A DNA stretch of 34,869 bases from Parvularculaceae bacterium (GTDB taxonomy: Bacteria > Pseudomonadota > Alphaproteobacteria > Caulobacterales > Parvularculaceae): assembly GCA_021776435.1 (NCBI GenBank), contig JAJFFW010000030.1, forward strand, positions 1-34,869. The letters run 5' to 3'. The notes under the pieces are model-generated. The model searched no databases, was not told the origin of the DNA, and was given only the letters and a program-made list of their open reading frames with translations. Below, piece after piece: positions 24,742 to 34,869 of this stretch (position 1 is the stretch's first letter; each line of letters starts with the position of its first letter). The translations under genes were made by a program, and so were the position numbers.

Positions 24742-24822
<81 letters not shown>

Positions 24823-24882
24823 CCAAGAAGTTCAATAAATTACAAAGACCGACATCTTGGACACCATCCTTATTTTTCTGCT

Positions 24883-24900
24883 AGGTAACACTTAGGTAAC
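24883..24900 (+). promoter_or_regulatory. Candidate integrase arm-type sites (left interior)
   Basis: AGGTAAC occurs at 24883-24889 and again at 24894-24900, 11 bp apart (one helical turn). The same pair with the same spacing occurs near the other end of the element at 34283-34300. This placement fits arm-binding sites for the integrase. Confidence 0.55.
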
Positions 24901-25012
24901 AACCTCAACGGCTCTGCTTGGCCGTGTTTTTCAAAAAAGTTTATTCGTAAAATGCGGGTGCTTTCGACACGAGTGCTCGTGTCTACACAATGGCTGGCCC
25001 GGTGCTGGCCAG

Positions 25013-25248: not shown

Positions 25249-25387
25249 CAAATTATCAATTCTTAGTGAATCTAACTAAACTTGTTTTTAGTGTAAGTCG
25301 GTATTGATGGGTTTTTTTAGAGTCTATTTCGAATTCAATAAATCCTGACCTAAATTGCCTCGCTTGCGCTCAACAGGGAGGGAAGCC

Positions 25388-28300
25388 GTGACCGCCGATG
25401 CTGCCGCAACAGACGAACACGAACTGGAGGCGTGGGTCCGGACGCGCATCGAGGTGCTCCGCCCTAAACTGCTCGATCTCACCCGCAGGAATCCGCTGAT
25501 TTCCACAAAGCTCACGCCGCGTTCGAATTCCCACGTCCGCGTTGTTGATGAGTTACCCGATGTGCTCGCCTTCGAACTCAGTAATCAGCAAAGCATGCGG
25601 TTTGTTCCGCTTCCTTCCCTCGATCTCGATCCCAAGGATGAGCTGCGACCGGATTTCCGGGTCGCGCTGGCTGAAGCCCACCGCATAGACGAAACATACC
25701 TGGAAGCGATCAAAGCGATTCAAAACGGTGGCGACGAAGCGCAGGATGAAATTCGGCGTCTTGAGCGCGAACTCAAAGATCGCGTGCGTGAACGCTTAGG
25801 TCTGCCGCTGCGTCAGACGGGCGCTGACATTTCCCTTGCCCAACATGCCAAACTGCATGGGATTTCTCCGTACTATGACTTGCCCGATCCGAGCGAAGAA
25901 CATCAGGACGGGCGACACCGGGACGATGATATACAGACGCTTCTGCTGACGGACGATCTTGAGAGGAAAATGACCGGCATCACCACAAAATGCCGGACAT
26001 GGCTGCAAGAAACCGGAATTAACGTCCTGCATGTGGCATTTGGCTTTCTCGAATGGCAAGATGACAGATTACGCAGCAGCGCCTTTGCTCCGCTCGCCCT
26101 CATGCCCGTCGGAATTACAAAGAAAAAAACGCCGGAAGGCCCGGAGTTCCGGGTGACGGGGCTGGGCGATGCCGGCGAATCGAATCTCGTCCTTGCCGAA
26201 ATGCTGCGTAACGATTTCGGCATCGATCTGCCGAAGGTCTCAGAAGGATCCATTGAAGATTATCTGGCGGAAGTCGCCGAAATAAAACCGCGCAATCTGA
26301 AATGGAAGGTGCGCAGGCAGGTCGCCTTTGGCGTTTTTCCCTCGGCGCGCATGGCGATGTATCACGACCTCGATACGTCGCAGACCTCATTTCACAATCA
26401 GGAATTGGTGAAACAGCTTCTCGGCGGCATGGATACTTCGGAGGCTTCACCGTTCGCCGATGAATATGATGTCGATGCGCCCGAAATCGAGGCCAAGATT
26501 CCCTGCCTGGTGATGGATGCCGATTCCTCGCAGCTTAGAATCATTGCAGACATTGCCGATGGGCGCAATCTAGCCGTAGAAGGCCCCCCTGGTACGGGCA
26601 AATCTCAAACGATCGTCAATACGATTGCGAGCGCGATTGCGGGCGGCAAGAAGGTGCTGTTCGTCGCTGAGAAAATGGCCGCGCTGGAAGTCGTTAAATC
26701 GCGCCTCGAATCTGTCGGGCTTGGCGAGTTTGTTCTGCCTTTGCAGGCCGAACGCTCAACGCGCGATCAGGTTATATCTTCTGTCAGGGAACGGATTGAA
26801 ATGGCCGCGCCGAGCGCCGCGCCCGATTATGAATCAAAGCTCGCGCAGTTCAGAAAAGTCCGATCTGAGCTGACAATATATATTGACGTTATCTCATCGC
26901 CCTATGGTGCTACTGGCCTGAAAGTCTACGATGTCCTTGGCAGGGCTATGTGGTCTAACGACATGCTAAAAGACCGGCCTGACGTATTTCTTAACCCGCC
27001 TATCAGCGATCCGGAATCTTTTGATAAGATTCGCCTTGAGACGCTTCGTCAGGCTGGAGACCAGTTGGATACAGCGAGCAACGAAGCGTCTCTGGCGGCA
27101 GAATATTGGCGCGGCCTTAATATCGAAAGTGCAGATCGATTCACGCTGGAGCAAATCTTGGCGCTCGCGAAGAGCGCCAAGGGTACTTATGACGCAGCCG
27201 CGCATGAACGGGAAGCACTTCAGGAGTTTAAGCTTGATCCTAAGCTGCCGGAAAGCGGTCTTGTGACTATCGAAGGCGCGCTAAAGGAGATCAATTCACA
27301 GATTGCTGGCTGCGATCCGGCATCTATTGTGCGTATAGCGAAAAACGGCGCACTCAGCGCTATCGGGAAATTCCAGGAGGCGTGTGCTCGCTATCAGACG
27401 GTCCTCGGAAAACTAAAAAAATTCCTTGTCGCGCCGTCCGACGATATGCTGGCAGGGCGCGTGCGCAGAATATATGCGTTTTGCAGTCAAAACAGCATCA
27501 ACTCGCTCGACCTCGAAGCACTTCTCCGCCGTATTGAATCAGACCGGTACGAACTCGCGTCGCTGGAGAAGGTTGAGGCGTCTTTATCGGATTTACCCGA
27601 GGACATTCTGGATTCAGAGAGCTTAAACATCGATGCGATCCGCATAGCGCATGATGTCATCTCCAATTCTTCACCAGAATCTCTCGCATTGCGCACTTCC
27701 GCGAATGCTAATCCGGCAGCCGCTCTCATCGTTCAGCAGGCTGCGCAATCTGGAAGGAAGTTGCGTGAAGAAAAGGCCAAACTCGAAGAGAGTCTGATCA
27801 TCCCATCCGATATGACCTCGACTGAGCTTGCCGGACATGCTGCAGCCTTACGCGATGCAGGTTTCTTCTCCTTTTTTTCAACCTCCTACCGTACCGCAAA
27901 ACGCACCTTGCGCACACTGTCTCGCGCAGGGCGTGTGAAGAAAAATGAAGATGTCCGACAGTTACAGGCGCTGGCGGATTGGAAAGCGTCGGAAGCAAAG
28001 CTGCTGGCCGATGAGCAAGCCAAAACGTGCTTCGGCATGCTCTTTAGAGGTATCGAGACGGATTTTGATGCCTTTGAGAAACTTGGCTGTTACTACGAGC
28101 AAGTAGATCAACGCCTCAAAGGCAACGGCAACCGCAATCTGCGCCGCTTCTTGAAAGAAGGCGATCTTGATGCGCTCCTCGCCGTTCCCGAGTTTCCAAA
28201 AACGCAATGGGACGGAAAAATCTCAGAGCTTTCCGATAACCGCACTGAGTTGGAACGCCAAATCCAGGCGTTCAAAGCGGCGCATCGAGAATTAAAAGAG

Positions 28301-30910
28301 TTATGCAGTTGCTTCATAGCGCCTGCAAAAATGCGGATTGACGCTCTGCCGGAACTTGCCAAGCAAATTGAGGCCAATGTCAACCGTAAACATGAACTCG
28401 ATAACAATACAGCTATTGCAGGCATACTCGAAGAGCGATTTAGCGGGGCGGCTACCAACACCGACGATCTTGCCCGTGATCTGGCGCTCGCCCGGTTTAC
28501 ACTTTCGCATGATGCCTATGCCGATGAAATCCTAATTCAGATTGAGTCAGACACGATCACACCTTGCCTGAGCGCGCTGCATAACGTGCAAAAGCACGGC
28601 GCGCTCGCCCATGGAACACTTCAAGCGCTTTGTGATCGCTCGCATATTCCTCAACGCCACTACACTGAAGGCAGAGATCATGGGCAGATCGCCGCGTTTC
28701 TCGATGCAGCAATCAATGATGAATCCGGCCTTCAGGCGCATGCGAAATATGCGCGCGCGCGTCGTCGCGTCGATGAGTTGGGCTTTGGCTGGGCGACGGC
28801 GGCGCTTTTGGGCCAAGAACATGCGCTAAGAGGTTTCGGCAAGATCATCGAAGCTTCGGTTATTCGCGCTATGGCGCTTCAGCTCATGGCGGCACACGGG
28901 GCCGTGCTTGACCGATTTCCCGGCACGCAGCTCGACGCACTTCGCGCAAGGCTCGCCAAGCTCGATTCACAAATCATACGCTTGGCCCAACAGCAACTCA
29001 GAACCATGGTCGCCGGCAACACCAATCCTCCGCCAGGAATCGGATCAGGGCCAAAATCACGCTGGACCGAAATGGCCTTGCTTGAAAACGAAACGAGCAA
29101 GAAGCAGAGATTCATAGCCGTGCGCGACCTGACGCAACGCGCCCGCCGATCGCTGCAAGAGCTAAAGCCCTGCTGGATGATGTCGCCGTTGGCTGTGGCG
29201 CAATACCTTCCTGCGGGCGAGGTTTCTTTCGACCTCTGCATCATAGATGAAGCCTCACAGATGCGCCCGGAAGACGCAATCGGCGCTCTTGCGCGTTGTG
29301 CTCAAGCCATGATTGTCGGCGACACCAACCAGCTTCCGCCGTCCAACTTCTTCCAAAAGATGCTGGATGACGGCGAAGGCGAAGACGACGATGCATTGGT
29401 TGACGAAGAATCGATTCTTGAAATCGCCAATTCCCGCTTTCGCCCCGCACGGCGCCTGCGATGGCACTACCGCTCGCAACATTCCGGGCTTATCCGGTTT
29501 TCAAATGAGCTGGTCTATCACAACGATCTGGTTATCTTCCCATCTGCATCCGAACAGCGCGCCGACATGGGCGTATCGCTCGTACCGGTGGAGGGACGCT
29601 ATAGATCGGGAGTCAATCCCGATGAGGCGCAGGCTATTGTCGAAGCGGCAATTCGGTTTATGCGAACATATCCGGACCGCTCTCTGGGAATCGTCACGCT
29701 CAATCAAAAGCAGCGCGATCTGCTGATTGACGAAGTGAATTACGCGCTCGAAAATGATCCCGCCGCGACGACGTACGTAGAGAACTGGGCAAAGCGCAAT
29801 GACGGGCTTGAATCGTTCTTCATCAAAAACCTTGAAAATGTGCAGGGTGATCAGAGAGATGTCATATTCATCGGCACCGTTTACGGTCCAGAGCAGCCGG
29901 GCGGACCCGTCATGCAGCGCTTCGGGCCGATTAACGGGAAAGCGGGGCGGCGAAGACTCAACGTTCTCTTCTCGCGCGCTAAGCTACAAATAGTGACATT
30001 TTCATCGATGAATCCGTCCGATATCCGGGCCAATGAAAACTCCAATCCAGGCACTTACATGCTCAAGCACTGGCTGGAATATTCCGCGAGCGGTGTGCTT
30101 GAAGCCACAGACCAGGCCTATGCGAACACAGATTCCGATTTCGAGGATTATGTGATCCAGCAACTAAAGTCGATGGGCTGCGAGCCAGTACCGCAAGTCG
30201 GAGCCGCCGGGTATTTCATCGATATTGGCGTGAAGCATCCTGATTGGCCTTACGGATATATTCTGGCTGTGGAGTGCGACGGCGCGAGCTATCATTCATG
30301 CCGTTCAGCGCGGGATCGCGACCGACTTCGACAGGAAGTTTTGGAGCGTCGCGGCTGGAAATTCCATCGTATATGGTCCACGGATTGGTTCAACGATCCT
30401 ATTCGCGAGGCGCAGCGAATGCGCGAAGCTATAAAAGGAAGGCTTACGGAATTATCGTCTCAGCAGGAAAGTTATGCGCCGCCATCTCCCGTTAAATACG
30501 ACGCGGCGGATATTGATGTTCAAAGTGCTCTGCCCACAGATGCGACGGCTGCAAAAGTCATCGATTCACAATTGGATTTGCAGGCGTCCATTTCGCCAGA
30601 CAAAGAATCCAAAACTGAGCTCTCTCAAACAGGGGCGTCGCAGACACCTTCACCCTTCATTGAGGTAGGTGATCAGGTGCGGGTTCGTTATCTGGCCGGA
30701 TCGCAAGTGACCATACAAGTCAGGATAAGCGATAAGCTGAACGATCCCGACAATGGTGTTATATGCGCTCATGAGCCGCTCGCTACAGCATTGATTGGTG
30801 CAGAACAGGGCGAAGAGGTTGAGGTGTTGATAGGAAGCTATGTGCGCAAAGCTCTTATTGAAAACGTCATCAAAGCAGAGAATGCAGAGGCGGTAAATTC
30901 GAACGCCTAA
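25388..30910 (+). CDS. DUF4011 / SF1 helicase / Vsr-like nuclease with Gre-like C-terminal domain (candidate defence protein)
   Basis: About 1840 aa. I choose GTG at 25388 with RBS AGGGAGG 6 nt upstream over a TTG at 25355 that lacks one. Order: DUF4011-type N-terminus (EAWVRTRIEVLRPKLLDLTRRNPL); helicase first half with Walker A GPPGTGKS near residue 400; long alpha-helical insertion (about 480-1200); Walker B CIIDEASQM near 1282, GDTNQLPPSNF, RWHYRSQH near 1357, ENVQGDQRDVIF and NVLFSRAK near 1525. Then a Vsr/MTES_1575-type nuclease (about 1585-1677) with FIDIGV, AVECDGASYHS, RDRDRLRQ, GWKFHRIWSTDWF. After a low-complexity linker, residues about 1756-1835 resemble the GreA/GreB C-terminal domain. 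All helicase and nuclease motifs look intact. This is the main cargo of the element; one-gene helicase-DUF4011-Vsr proteins are known phage-defence genes (Hhe, as I recall). Defence is inference. Confidence 0.85.
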   Translation: MTADAAATDEHELEAWVRTRIEVLRPKLLDLTRRNPLISTKLTPRSNSHVRVVDELPDVLAFELSNQQSMRFVPLPSLDLDPKDELRPDFRVALAEAHRIDETYLEAIKAIQNGGDEAQDEIRRLERELKDRVRERLGLPLRQTGADISLAQHAKLHGISPYYDLPDPSEEHQDGRHRDDDIQTLLLTDDLERKMTGITTKCRTWLQETGINVLHVAFGFLEWQDDRLRSSAFAPLALMPVGITKKKTPEGPEFRVTGLGDAGESNLVLAEMLRNDFGIDLPKVSEGSIEDYLAEVAEIKPRNLKWKVRRQVAFGVFPSARMAMYHDLDTSQTSFHNQELVKQLLGGMDTSEASPFADEYDVDAPEIEAKIPCLVMDADSSQLRIIADIADGRNLAVEGPPGTGKSQTIVNTIASAIAGGKKVLFVAEKMAALEVVKSRLESVGLGEFVLPLQAERSTRDQVISSVRERIEMAAPSAAPDYESKLAQFRKVRSELTIYIDVISSPYGATGLKVYDVLGRAMWSNDMLKDRPDVFLNPPISDPESFDKIRLETLRQAGDQLDTASNEASLAAEYWRGLNIESADRFTLEQILALAKSAKGTYDAAAHEREALQEFKLDPKLPESGLVTIEGALKEINSQIAGCDPASIVRIAKNGALSAIGKFQEACARYQTVLGKLKKFLVAPSDDMLAGRVRRIYAFCSQNSINSLDLEALLRRIESDRYELASLEKVEASLSDLPEDILDSESLNIDAIRIAHDVISNSSPESLALRTSANANPAAALIVQQAAQSGRKLREEKAKLEESLIIPSDMTSTELAGHAAALRDAGFFSFFSTSYRTAKRTLRTLSRAGRVKKNEDVRQLQALADWKASEAKLLADEQAKTCFGMLFRGIETDFDAFEKLGCYYEQVDQRLKGNGNRNLRRFLKEGDLDALLAVPEFPKTQWDGKISELSDNRTELERQIQAFKAAHRELKELCSCFIAPAKMRIDALPELAKQIEANVNRKHELDNNTAIAGILEERFSGAATNTDDLARDLALARFTLSHDAYADEILIQIESDTITPCLSALHNVQKHGALAHGTLQALCDRSHIPQRHYTEGRDHGQIAAFLDAAINDESGLQAHAKYARARRRVDELGFGWATAALLGQEHALRGFGKIIEASVIRAMALQLMAAHGAVLDRFPGTQLDALRARLAKLDSQIIRLAQQQLRTMVAGNTNPPPGIGSGPKSRWTEMALLENETSKKQRFIAVRDLTQRARRSLQELKPCWMMSPLAVAQYLPAGEVSFDLCIIDEASQMRPEDAIGALARCAQAMIVGDTNQLPPSNFFQKMLDDGEGEDDDALVDEESILEIANSRFRPARRLRWHYRSQHSGLIRFSNELVYHNDLVIFPSASEQRADMGVSLVPVEGRYRSGVNPDEAQAIVEAAIRFMRTYPDRSLGIVTLNQKQRDLLIDEVNYALENDPAATTYVENWAKRNDGLESFFIKNLENVQGDQRDVIFIGTVYGPEQPGGPVMQRFGPINGKAGRRRLNVLFSRAKLQIVTFSSMNPSDIRANENSNPGTYMLKHWLEYSASGVLEATDQAYANTDSDFEDYVIQQLKSMGCEPVPQVGAAGYFIDIGVKHPDWPYGYILAVECDGASYHSCRSARDRDRLRQEVLERRGWKFHRIWSTDWFNDPIREAQRMREAIKGRLTELSSQQESYAPPSPVKYDAADIDVQSALPTDATAAKVIDSQLDLQASISPDKESKTELSQTGASQTPSPFIEVGDQVRVRYLAGSQVTIQVRISDKLNDPDNGVICAHEPLATALIGAEQGEEVEVLIGSYVRKALIENVIKAENAEAVNSNA

Positions 30911-32261: not shown

Positions 32262-32972
32262 TTATAGTTTCCGGGCAGATTTAATTTGTTCAGCCGTCAT
32301 TTGAAAATCGTCGCGGATTACGAGACGAATAACTTCGTTTTGAAAGCCTTTTTCCGTTCCATGCATTTTTAAGAGCGAGGCGTGAATTATTGGATAGGCG
32401 TGCGTCATTGGTTTCGAGAAGTCGATTTCGCCTTTCAATTTTAATTTTTGATATGCCGCCTCTATTTTATCGCGTGAACTGGGCCGACCCGCGGGCCGTG
32501 GAGGCTGTATATTCGGGGGTTTTTTTGCAAGCGCTGTTTTATGCGTTTTTATCGTTGAATTTCTTGACCGTTTAATTATTCGCACGCTCTCGAATTTCAG
32601 GCTGCCACTCTGAATTTCCGATTTTGAAAAATCAATTTCGCCCAATTGCCAAATGTCAGCGGGAATTTCCTTCGGATCATCTCCAAGTTCGCGCGGCGTT
32701 AAATATCCAAAACCTAATAATTTTTCCGTTGCCAACTGGCGTTTAAAATCTGCCTTTACGGCATTAATTCTCCGGTTATGTTCTGTAATCGTGGTGCTGA
32801 TTTTTGCAAATCCGTGAATTAATCGCTCCGTAGCCTTTTCTTGATTTTCGGCATTTTCAGATACCGGATATGACTGAGAATAAGGCTGGGAATTGAATTT
32901 CCGCCAATTTCCGTATTTGTCGAGCGCGTCCATTAATGGAATGCTTGAATTATATGCGTCTTGCGGGGTCAT
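32262..32972 (-). CDS. Hypothetical island protein coupled to integrase
   Basis: A 236-aa protein with no firm family. The C-terminal part, AGRPSSRDKIEAAYQKLKLKGEIDFSK and following, resembles a short module seen beside integrases in alphaproteobacterial islands (GRPSxRDxIxxAY). The heptapeptide GEIDFSK occurs twice (residues 111-117 and 181-187), which suggests an internal duplication. The middle (130-160) is basic and low-complexity. Its ATG overlaps the integrase stop (ATGA), so the two are translationally coupled. A DNA-binding or recombination-accessory role is a guess from context. Confidence 0.75.
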   Translation of the reverse strand: MTPQDAYNSSIPLMDALDKYGNWRKFNSQPYSQSYPVSENAENQEKATERLIHGFAKISTTITEHNRRINAVKADFKRQLATEKLLGFGYLTPRELGDDPKEIPADIWQLGEIDFSKSEIQSGSLKFESVRIIKRSRNSTIKTHKTALAKKPPNIQPPRPAGRPSSRDKIEAAYQKLKLKGEIDFSKPMTHAYPIIHASLLKMHGTEKGFQNEVIRLVIRDDFQMTAEQIKSARKL

Positions 32973-34240
32973 GGCTGCATTTCAATCTGCGAATTCGGCT
33001 TTTTCGGAAACTCTACGATTTCCGCATCGGCTTTTCCGTTCAATGCGTCCAAAATTCTTTCGGAGATTATATCCGCTGCAGCGACCAGCGCCTTATCGGG
33101 CATATGCGCATAGCGTGCGGTCACGCCTGAAAGGGAGTGACCTAATAAACCGGCTATTGTCAGTTCGGAATAACCGAGGCCTGCTGCAGCGGACGCAAAG
33201 CTATGGCGAAGCGTATGAATTGTTGCGCCCTCTATATTCGCACGCATGCAAAGGCGCATAAAAACGCGAGGCAAGCCGACAAAATGCCCCTCCCCAGTTA
33301 ACGCAGGAAAAACCCACTTCCCGTTTTCTATTCGCGATAAACTTTGCAATAAATCGACGGCAGGTTTTCCGAGTGGTCGAATTTGCGCGCCGGTTTTTGT
33401 ATCGCCAAACCGAATACAAGAATTTGTCGCGTCAATCCACTCCCAGGGAAGGCTTAATATTTCACCGCGACGGCACCCGGTTAAGGCAAGGGTTTTTAGC
33501 GCGTCTATTCCAGTTAAATTTTTGCCGTCTAATTCCGCTTCACGCATCGCAGCGCCAAATGCGACGAACTCATCAAAACTAAAAAACCGCGTGCGTTTTT
33601 GGTTTGGATATTTTTTCGCAAGCCGCGCCGGGTTGTCTTTGATCACGCCATTGCGCCGCGCGAATTCCAGAATGGCGCCGAGCATGCCGAGCGTGCGCGC
33701 GCCAACGCCTCTCCCGCCCGTCGTGTTAGCGCCGCGCCCAATGCGCCTTTTCATCTTGGCGGTTTTGCCCGCTGCAATATCGGCCTGCATGCGCTCAAGA
33801 TCGGAAACTGTGATCCGAGCGACTGCGCGATTACCGATGAGCGGTTTAACGTGACATTCGATGCGGCTCTTATCCATAGAGAGCGTTGACGGCTTTACCC
33901 ATGTAGTCGCGGCTTCAAGATACCAATCGCAAAGCTCTGCAACTGTCATCGCGTTGCGAGCGGCTGCCTTCTCTCCTGCGGGATCGCCGCCTCTATCCGC
34001 TTCTGCGAGTTTCTGTCGAGCTTCCTTGCGCGCCTCATCGGGCGTGAGCGTGCCAAGGCGCCCTAGTGTAAGTTTACGCTGACGGCCTTCATGGGTCCGA
34101 TACATAACAACCCATGAACCCGCGCCACCCGCTTGGATACGCAGTCCGAACCCTTTAAGTTTGTCGTCCCAATAGGTAATTTCTTTCCCGTTCAGATCGG
34201 GCTTAATTGCATCTGCAAATCGTTTGGTCAGACGGGGCAT
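32969..34240 (-). CDS. int: Tyrosine recombinase/integrase (DUF4102 type)
   Basis: A 423-aa P4-like integrase. The N-terminal arm-binding domain (DUF4102) spans about residues 1-90 (LTKRFADAIKP, KGFGLRIQAGGAGSWVVMYR). The SAM-like core-binding domain spans about 100-200. The catalytic set is complete: R257 (TGCRRGEI), K282 (TKTG), H342 and R345 (HTLRHSFAS), H368 (LLGHSL) and nucleophile Y377 (ARYAHM). It lies next to the right attachment repeat, as usual for tRNA-targeting islands. It probably drives insertion at tRNA-Gly. Confidence 0.96.
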   Translation of the reverse strand: MPRLTKRFADAIKPDLNGKEITYWDDKLKGFGLRIQAGGAGSWVVMYRTHEGRQRKLTLGRLGTLTPDEARKEARQKLAEADRGGDPAGEKAAARNAMTVAELCDWYLEAATTWVKPSTLSMDKSRIECHVKPLIGNRAVARITVSDLERMQADIAAGKTAKMKRRIGRGANTTGGRGVGARTLGMLGAILEFARRNGVIKDNPARLAKKYPNQKRTRFFSFDEFVAFGAAMREAELDGKNLTGIDALKTLALTGCRRGEILSLPWEWIDATNSCIRFGDTKTGAQIRPLGKPAVDLLQSLSRIENGKWVFPALTGEGHFVGLPRVFMRLCMRANIEGATIHTLRHSFASAAAGLGYSELTIAGLLGHSLSGVTARYAHMPDKALVAAADIISERILDALNGKADAEIVEFPKKPNSQIEMQP

Positions 34241-34256
34241 AGCGCACTCAAAACCT

Positions 34257-34300
34257 GTTACCTAAAACTCAACGCCATGGTTAGGTAACAAATAGGTAAC
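34257..34300. promoter_or_regulatory. Candidate arm-type sites and integrase leader
   Basis: GTTACCT (34257-34263) is the reverse complement of AGGTAAC, which follows at 34283-34289 and 34294-34300. The direct pair is 11 bp apart, exactly as at 24883-24900. The cluster lies 17-60 bp upstream of the int ATG, so integrase binding here could also repress its own gene. Confidence 0.5.
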
Positions 34301-34378
34301 AACGCACAGCGAATTCCGGCGTCGATCAACGCAGACTATACCACGAGCATATTGGTTTTTCATCAATAAAATCATGAG

Positions 34379-34429: not shown

Positions 34430-34483
<54 letters not shown>

Positions 34484-34869
34484 CCAAGAAAAACAGCCAG
34501 TTAGAAGATGTGATTGTTTAGTCGCCATCATAGCTTTGCTCCCAGCTAACAGTTAGGGAACAACCATAACCATTCACCTTGGCCGCATTCGTCGTGAGAA
34601 ATTATTCGTAGACCGCAAGCACTTTCGTTTCGCACGACCTCGTTAAGACAACGCACACCCCACCCTCAGCTCCCCGCGTATTGGACAAACCGAATTTGTT
34701 GACGGCAGCATAGTAAGACGAGCGACTCTCCGCCCTGACGACAGTCTTCATTCTATGGATATCTGACACTATGCAGGGATTTTGTCAGATTGTGAAACGT
34801 CTTTGCGGCTTCGGGGGGCTAATTCAGGGGATACCCCGCTCACGGATCTGACACTATCACCCATAGTGT
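34484..34869. other. Non-coding flank with decayed element end and inverted motifs
   Basis: No gene was found. From about 34545 to 34650 the sequence resembles the left interior of the element (24880-24990): GCTAACAGTTAGGGAACAACC against GCTAGGTAACACTTAGG and its continuation, then CTTGGCCG, TTATTCGTA and a CTTTCG block in the same order. The last 110 bp carry ATCTGACA...TGTCAGAT (34761-34768/34783-34790) and ATCTGACACTAT (34846-34857) followed by ATAGTGT at the window edge. Confidence 0.6.

What the first reader, a model, noticed from the sequence alone, without database searches (positions are those of the whole stretch)
30640..30907. GreA/GreB-like domain fused to a mobile helicase-nuclease
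The last about 80 residues of the large cargo protein read as VGDQVRVRYLAG, DPDNGVICAHEPLATALIG and EQGEEVEVLIG, in the same order and spacing as the C-terminal FKBP-like domain of GreA/GreB, including the P-x3-ALIG core. In Gre factors this domain binds the RNA polymerase rim; the coiled coil that enters the secondary channel is absent here. The domain follows the Vsr-like nuclease across a disordered linker, in the place where related proteins often carry DUF3320. The inference is that the helicase-nuclease docks on RNA polymerase or transcription complexes, for example to sense heavily transcribed phage DNA. I do not know of this fusion being studied.
Basis: partly seen in the sequence, partly recalled or inferred. 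Interest (0 to 1): 0.85.

Follow-up and report, generated by a model that had tools for sequence, protein, structure and literature searches.

The report
Helicase-nuclease with Gre-factor tail
A large anti-phage-type DNA-cutting enzyme, carried on a small mobile island, ends in a true copy of the piece that GreA/GreB proteins use to grip RNA polymerase; the tail is conserved in a whole branch of this enzyme family and suggests, but does not prove, that the enzyme reaches its DNA target by riding on transcription.

Summary
Window 30653-30874 encodes a real GreA/GreB C-terminal (FKBP-like) domain at the end of an 1851-aa DUF4011 / SF1 helicase / MTES_1575 (Vsr-like) nuclease. Five lines agree: the Pfam gathering score; profile-profile comparison with GreA (98.1%, E 8e-14); an AlphaFold model (pLDDT 90) whose top 14 PDB matches are GreA, GreB, Gfh1 and Rnk; the tail profile matching in 387 of 398 genomes of the phylum, the best matches being GreA-sized; and all 44 tails matching PF01272. 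The Gre coiled coil is absent, the linker is predicted disordered, and the domain is under purifying selection. The fusion marks one branch of the DUF4011 helicase-nuclease family, across several phyla, with some losses. The gene sits on a ~9.7 kb island with 61-bp att repeats in tRNA-Gly. Docking on RNA polymerase is plausible but unproven: the fold and P-x3-AL core are kept, yet the serine whose S121P change impairs E. coli GreA binding is Ser in only 10 of 44 tails (Cys here). GreA/B-C domains in other predicted immunity proteins were described in 2021 with the same RNA polymerase idea; I found no paper on this fusion. New variant of a known kind.

The parts
25355..30910 (+). Gene of the fusion protein, 1851 aa (TTG start as listed; the true start may be another codon)
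   Evidence: closest homologue L034 (Marinicaulis flavus) matches residues 8-1843 at 85%
25466..26206 (+). DUF4011 (PF13195), residues 38-284
   Evidence: 104.3 bits, cut-off 22.2
26534..26704 (+). SF1 helicase N-terminal motif region with Walker A GPPGTGKS at residue 410
   Evidence: PF13245/PF13604 hits; motif
29225..30001 (+). SF1 helicase C-terminal half (AAA_11 end with Walker B DEAS at residue 1298, and AAA_12), residues 1291-1549
   Evidence: PF13086 52 bits, PF13087 44 bits; motif
30140..30433 (+). MTES_1575 Vsr-like restriction-endonuclease-fold nuclease, residues 1596-1693, motif VECDGASYH present at 1639
   Evidence: PF18741 120.5 bits, cut-off 38.2; motif
30446..30652 (+). Ser/Glu/Pro/Thr/Gln-rich linker, residues 1698-1766; fast evolving and predicted disordered
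   Evidence: pLDDT 42-47 over about residues 1725-1761; linker dN/dS 0.2-0.45 against 0.03-0.08 for the core
30653..30874 (+). GreA/GreB C-terminal FKBP-like domain, residues 1767-1840
24742..24816 (+). tRNA-Gly(gcc), attachment gene of the island
   Evidence: ARAGORN
24769..24829 (+). Left att repeat (61 bp), overlaps the 3' part of tRNA-Gly
   Evidence: 98% identical to 34430-34490
34430..34490 (+). Right att repeat (61 bp)
   Evidence: sequence read
32969..34240 (-). Tyrosine integrase (Arm-DNA-bind_3 + Phage_integrase), 423 aa
   Evidence: Pfam 56.6 and 55.5 bits
31135..31791 (+). TetR-like regulator, 218 aa, on the island
   Evidence: PF00440 21.5 bits, just under cut-off 24

Best explanation
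A single-gene, island-borne anti-phage-type enzyme of the DUF4011 / SF1 helicase / MTES_1575 nuclease family (relatives: Hhe, ProA, PADLOC candidate PDC-S37) carries at its C-terminus, on a flexible tether, a genuine Gre-factor C-terminal domain. Most likely mechanism: the tail binds host RNA polymerase, probably at the beta' rim helices where GreA, GreB, Gfh1 and Rnk bind, without a coiled coil to enter the secondary channel. This would keep the helicase-nuclease next to DNA being transcribed, so that it acts preferentially on strongly transcribed or structurally abnormal invading DNA. Shown here: homology of the tail, its fold, its conservation in a clade, its tether, Walker A, Walker B and nuclease motifs present by sequence, and the mobile island. 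Inferred: anti-phage activity, RNAP binding, and delivery of the nuclease to transcribed DNA.
For: Homology and fold of the tail. In the whole-phylum scan the tail profile, built without any GreA, hits 387 of 398 genomes; the best-scoring matches after the window's own fusion are in open frames of GreA size, mostly 160-220 aa. Conservation as a unit: 44 tails in A1; a clade of 47 rows (SH-aLRT 99) holds 39 Gre-tailed proteins, three of the other eight being cut by contig ends; adding the divergent tailed row L007 gives a tree of slightly higher likelihood, and adding L021 too is not rejected (p-AU 0.63 and 0.33). Purifying selection: tail dN/dS 0.05-0.25 where dS is measurable, linker 0.2-0.45. 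Family role: NCBIfam and PADLOC best hits are anti-phage proteins or candidates. No constant gene partner, and some defence genes among the neighbours. Known biology: Gre CTDs bind beta' rim helices (PMC7527559, PMC4598747); Rnk binds RNAP although its coiled coil is too short to reach the active centre (PMC4598747); HelD is a UvrD-like NTPase with a GreA/B-like region that docks on RNAP (PMC7749165); Gre-C domains in other predicted conflict systems (PMC8195603).
Against: No binding data. Residues nearly invariant in GreA (E112, S121, S124, R128, K133) are mostly not kept in the tails; the S121 position is Cys in the window and Ser in only 10/44. GreA itself is reported to need both NTD and CTD for specific RNAP binding (PMC7527559), so a lone CTD could be weak. 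Several members of the clade lack the tail (L046, L055, L073, L075, L076), so it is dispensable at least in some lineages. Anti-phage activity of this protein was not tested.
Confidence: 0.5

Rival explanations
1. The Gre-C domain has been co-opted as a general protein-binding or regulatory module of the helicase-nuclease (binding a phage protein, another host protein, or the enzyme itself) and no longer binds RNA polymerase.
For: Fold-core positions are conserved but most GreA-specific invariant positions are not, including the S121 position implicated in RNAP binding (PMC7527559). Other C-terminal modules occupy the end of related proteins: DUF3320, a topoisomerase-type zinc ribbon (L073), RAMA/DUF4357-like domains after Gre-C (L082, L085), which fits a variable sensor slot.
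Against: All 44 tails still match PF01272, and Rnk, which shows that S124 is not essential (it has Ala there), binds RNAP (PMC4598747).
Confidence: 0.33
2. Guard or decoy: the tail mimics GreA so that a phage factor that targets the secondary-channel rim, or the altered RNAP it leaves, is detected and triggers the nuclease.
For: Phage and plasmid factors act at this site (TraR and lambda Orf73, PMC9239242, listed); the diversity of the contact loop among tails would suit recognition of changing partners.
Against: No direct evidence; needs an extra step beyond docking.
Confidence: 0.1
3. A housekeeping or repair role: a transcription-coupled helicase-nuclease analogous in logic to Mfd or UvrD, not an anti-phage system.
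For: RNAP-docking helicase-like NTPases are known outside defence (HelD, PMC7749165).
Against: Patchy distribution (32 of 385 class genomes have any homologue), island location with att repeats, and best matches to anti-phage models.
Confidence: 0.07

Closest known systems
Hhe / DUF4011 anti-phage protein (NCBIfam NF042953; PADLOC PDLC02194)
   Same: DUF4011 anti-phage helicase family; 1168 bits, best stretch residues 162-1706
   Different: Below the Hhe cut-off of 2000 bits; the Hhe plasmid proteins aligned here match only to residue 1682-1705, so no Gre tail is seen in them
PADLOC candidate PDC-S37 (PDLC05009) and NCBIfam ProA (NF058533)
   Same: PDC-S37 is the best PADLOC match (1105 bits); ProA is the second NCBIfam match (978 bits)
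   Different: ProA score is below its cut-off of 1500; none of the 44 tails matches any PADLOC model, so these models do not describe the Gre tail
GreA/GreB transcript cleavage factors, Gfh1, Rnk (PF01272 proteins)
   Same: C-terminal FKBP-like domain homologous by sequence and fold
   Different: No N-terminal coiled coil; fused to a helicase-nuclease; several GreA-invariant residues changed
TPR / GreA-B-C / PIN predicted conflict systems (Kaur et al. 2021, PMC8195603)
   Same: Gre-C domain inside a mostly standalone counter-invader protein, proposed to engage RNAP hijacked by virus
   Different: Different architecture: TPR plus PIN RNase with variable N-terminal effectors, no DUF4011, helicase or Vsr-like nuclease described
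HelD (B. subtilis)
   Same: SF1/UvrD-like NTPase carrying a Gre-like RNAP-docking region (PMC7749165; fold hit Z about 7)
   Different: Gre-like region is N-terminal and has the coiled coil; recycles RNAP and has no nuclease; Z about 7 is no higher than for unrelated FKBPs

Membership tests
GreA/GreB C-terminal domain (PF01272) | Reaches Pfam gathering score | tested here: met
   29.2-29.7 bits for the isolated tail, cut-off 26.9; 23.0 in the full-length protein
GreA/GreB C-terminal domain (PF01272) | Profile similarity to GreA in both directions | tested here: met
   hhalign 98.1%, E 8.3e-14; tail profile hits E. coli GreA 1GRJ at E 9e-8 and matches in 387/398 genomes, top-scoring ones GreA-sized
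GreA/GreB C-terminal domain (PF01272) | FKBP-like fold of Gre CTDs | tested here: met
   Foldseek top 14 all Gre-family; Z 12.1 to 1GRJ
Gre transcript cleavage factor (GreA/GreB proper) | N-terminal coiled coil with acidic tip | tested here: not met
   No Gre N-domain Pfam hit at E<=1; one helix then disordered linker in the model
RNAP rim-binding Gre-type factor | Residue implicated in RNAP binding kept (GreA S121) | tested here: inconclusive
   Cys in the window, Ser in 10/44 tails; Ser in the aligned E. coli GreA, GreB, Gfh1 and Rnk
RNAP rim-binding Gre-type factor | Physical binding to RNA polymerase | not testable with these tools
   No complex modelling or biochemistry available
Hhe (NCBIfam NF042953) | Curated equivalog cut-off 2000 bits | tested here: not met
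   1168.5 bits
ProA (NCBIfam NF058533) | Curated equivalog cut-off 1500 bits | tested here: not met
   977.8 bits
DUF4011 / SF1 helicase / MTES_1575 nuclease proteins | PF13195, AAA_11/AAA_12 and PF18741 above cut-offs in this order | tested here: met
TPR / GreA-B-C / PIN systems (PMC8195603) | TPR repeats and PIN domain | tested here: not met
   Neither found in the Pfam scan of the full protein at E<=1; the PIN of those systems is a divergent version, so a missed one is not fully excluded
Integrative genomic island | Integrase, tRNA attachment site, flanking direct repeats | tested here: met

The most novel reading that the evidence does not exclude
A transcription-coupled restriction enzyme: a helicase-nuclease that finds foreign DNA not by sequence or modification but by hitching to RNA polymerase through a Gre-type grip, so that heavy or abnormal transcription of phage DNA marks it for destruction.
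Probability: 0.3. Interest if true: 0.85.

Novelty: new variant of a known kind. Interest (0 to 1): 0.58.

Why it matters
How DUF4011 / Hhe-type defence proteins recognise invading DNA is, as far as I could find, not settled. A conserved RNAP-type docking domain on one branch gives a concrete, testable answer: recognition through transcription. It would join HelD and the predicted TPR/Gre-C/PIN systems as a case of a Gre module reused to bring another enzyme to RNA polymerase.

Tried and rejected
Chance match: rejected by homology, fold and conservation. Ribosomal protein S1 / KOW-type barrels: the PDB profile search gives weak short hits to S1 over the first ~30 positions and one tail hits KOW weakly, but Gre proteins rank first and cover the whole domain. 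Generic FKBP/SlyD: Z about 7 against 11-12.6 for GreA and Gfh1. phmmer of the single tail against PDB found nothing significant; the profile was needed. Phage-borne copies: none of the tail in 50,697 phage records; one partial relative in a metagenomic phage record and one IMG/VR contig that has the same length and match as the Paracoccus luteus locus. Conserved partner gene: none seen among 145 neighbour proteins, where the commonest Pfam family occurs in 4. GreB/Gfh1 contact residues from the primary structure papers could not be checked: those papers are not held. No empty-site search was done for the island.
Full report
WHAT IS THERE. The finding lies at the 3' end of ORF 25355-30910 (+), 1851 aa. 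Pfam gives, in order, DUF4011 (residues 38-284, 104 bits), helicase motifs (AAA_19/AAA_30 around Walker A GPPGTGKS at 410; AAA_11/AAA_12 with DEAS at 1298), MTES_1575 Vsr-like nuclease (1596-1693, 120 bits) and PF01272 GreA_GreB (1767-1835). The helicase and nuclease motifs are present, so nothing in the sequence suggests a dead enzyme. The best family matches are anti-phage: NCBIfam Hhe 1168 bits (cut-off 2000) and ProA 978 (cut-off 1500), PADLOC PDC-S37 1105 and Hhe 754. It is therefore a relative of Hhe, not a member by NCBI's own threshold.

IS THE TAIL REALLY A GRE DOMAIN. In the full-length scan PF01272 scores 23.0 bits, under the gathering score of 26.9; the isolated tail scores 29.2-29.7, over it. 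I collected relatives, extracted the distinct tails of 43 of them and aligned these with the window's (A1, 44 rows, no stand-alone GreA among them). Every one of the 44 matches PF01272 at E<=0.01 on its own. The A1 profile finds E. coli GreA (1GRJ, E 9e-8), a GreA/GreB-family protein (2PN0, 1e-6), Rnk (2e-4) and Gfh1 (3e-3) in the PDB. Run over 398 genomes of the phylum it matches in 387; after the window's own fusion the best-scoring listed matches lie in open frames of GreA size, mostly 160-220 aa, though I did not verify each one as GreA. Profile-profile comparison with ten GreA proteins gives 98.1%, E 8.3e-14, 29% identity over 73 columns. The AlphaFold model (pLDDT 89.9, pTM 0.76) matches only GreA, GreB, Gfh1 and Rnk in its first 14 PDB rows, with Z 12.1 to 1GRJ and 11.3 to Gfh1 in its RNAP complex, well above FKBP/SlyD at about 7.

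ANATOMY. A second model covering the nuclease end, linker and tail shows a 25-residue helix after the nuclease, a linker at pLDDT 42-47 (about residues 1725-1761) and then the well-defined Gre domain. Pfam finds no Gre N-terminal domain. So the coiled coil is absent and the domain is tethered. In close pairs the tail is under purifying selection (dN/dS 0.05-0.25 where synonymous change is not saturated; several tail values could not be computed), while the linker evolves fast (0.2-0.45) and the helicase-nuclease core slowly (0.03-0.08).

DISTRIBUTION. On a tree of the helicase-nuclease core (85 rows, tail columns not included), 39 Gre-tailed proteins fall in one branch of 47 (SH-aLRT 99). Of the eight without a labelled tail, L038 is cut by a contig end inside the Gre domain, L047 and L078 end at contig ends, and L046, L055, L073, L075 and L076 have other or short C-termini. 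Two further tailed rows, L007 and L021, sit just outside on long branches; holding L007 with the branch is at least as likely (p-AU 0.63), and holding both is not rejected (0.33). One origin with several losses is the simplest reading, but separate gain in L021 is not excluded. Record titles in the branch name Alphaproteobacteria, Gammaproteobacteria, Deltaproteobacteria, Nitrospinae, Binatia, Dadabacteria and a Bacteroidetes bin; MAG labels may be wrong. A near full-length relative lies on Rhizobium leguminosarum plasmid pRLN2, annotated only as 'DUF4011 domain-containing protein'. In the class sample 32 of 385 genomes have any homologue, and only a handful of these reach the tail. The set is biased towards the query, because the loci were found with peptides of the window protein.

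DUF3320. Outside the branch DUF3320 is common at that place (for example L084, 69 bits; L094, 49 bits). But L062 carries Gre-C followed by DUF3320 (28.6 bits, cut-off 25), and L068, L070 and L056 have similar long extensions after Gre-C, of which those of L068 and L056 were scanned and gave no Pfam hit; L082 and L085 have a RAMA/DUF4357-like extension (below cut-offs) after Gre-C. So Gre-C is an addition, not simply a replacement.

SETTING. The gene lies on an island of about 9.7 kb: tRNA-Gly at 24742-24816, 61-bp direct repeats at 24769-24829 and 34430-34490 at 98%, and a tyrosine integrase at 32969-34240. The other cargo is a TetR-like gene and an ORF without a Pfam hit. Across 27 related loci no partner gene recurs: the commonest Pfam family is found in 4 of 145 neighbour proteins. 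PADLOC hits among the neighbours include type I specificity subunits, Ssp components, PDC-S11 and mad3, but I ran no control for how often such hits occur by chance, and some of these models have housekeeping relatives. In L037 a tRNA-Gly(gcc) lies just upstream of the gene as well.

DOES IT BIND RNA POLYMERASE. Literature: the globular CTDs of Gre factors bind the beta' rim helices (PMC7527559; PMC4598747). [quoted passage not shown] In HelD a Gre-like N-terminal region sits on a UvrD-like NTPase (PMC7749165). Against: E. coli GreA is said to need both domains for specific binding (PMC7527559). At the sequence level (its window numbering is 4 too high), fold-core positions G89, V92, G118, P125, A129 (Gly in E. 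coli GreA) and L130 are kept in the tails, but positions near-invariant in GreA are not: E112, S121, S124, R128, K133. S121P impairs GreA binding to RNAP (PMC7527559), though proline could disturb the strand rather than remove a contact. S121 is Ser in E. coli GreA, GreB, Gfh1 and Rnk and in 22 of 30 GreA-set rows, but in the tails it is H 13, G 13, S 10, and Cys in the window (Ser in its close relatives L034 and L093). Position 124 is Ala in Rnk, so its change is less telling. I read this as leaving RNAP binding open, at about even odds.

PRECEDENT AND NOVELTY. Kaur et al. 2021 (PMC8195603) described predicted counter-invader proteins with TPR, GreA/B-C and PIN domains and proposed that they act on RNAP hijacked for viral transcription. 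Anantharaman et al. 2013 (PMC3710099) described giant SF1 helicase / Vsr / wHTH proteins and noted that the wHTH overlaps DUF3320. None of my searches found a paper that joins Gre-C to the DUF4011 helicase-nuclease, within an open-access library only. I file it as a new variant of a known kind: a known defence-type enzyme with an added known domain, in a conserved combination that I could not find described. RNAP-coupled targeting, if shown, would raise the interest considerably.

Noticed in passing
window 24882-24903, 34282-34303, 34543-34564: 22-nt direct repeats (TAGGTAACA motif twice in the second copy, nearly so in the first) near both island ends, possibly arm-type integrase sites; the third copy lies outside the right att repeat.
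   Followed up: no
L035 and L005, around the nuclease-linker junction: The homologous gene is split into a 1672-aa frame and a 159-aa frame that carries the Gre tail; one search counts two TAG codons in the L005 match. Either a decayed gene or a separated tail.
   Followed up: no
L082 and L085, after the Gre domain: Extra C-terminal extension resembling RAMA/DUF4357 (weak, below Pfam cut-offs), a domain type named for restriction enzymes and adenine methylases.
   Followed up: partly
L073 C-terminus: Member of the Gre-tailed branch that ends instead in topoisomerase-type zinc ribbons (PF01396, 40 bits).
   Followed up: no
L037:7737-7811: tRNA-Gly(gcc) lies just upstream of the related gene, as in the window, suggesting a shared integration site.
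   Followed up: no
window 32262-32972 (-): 236-aa ORF overlapping the integrase stop-to-start junction, no Pfam hit at E<=0.01.
   Followed up: no
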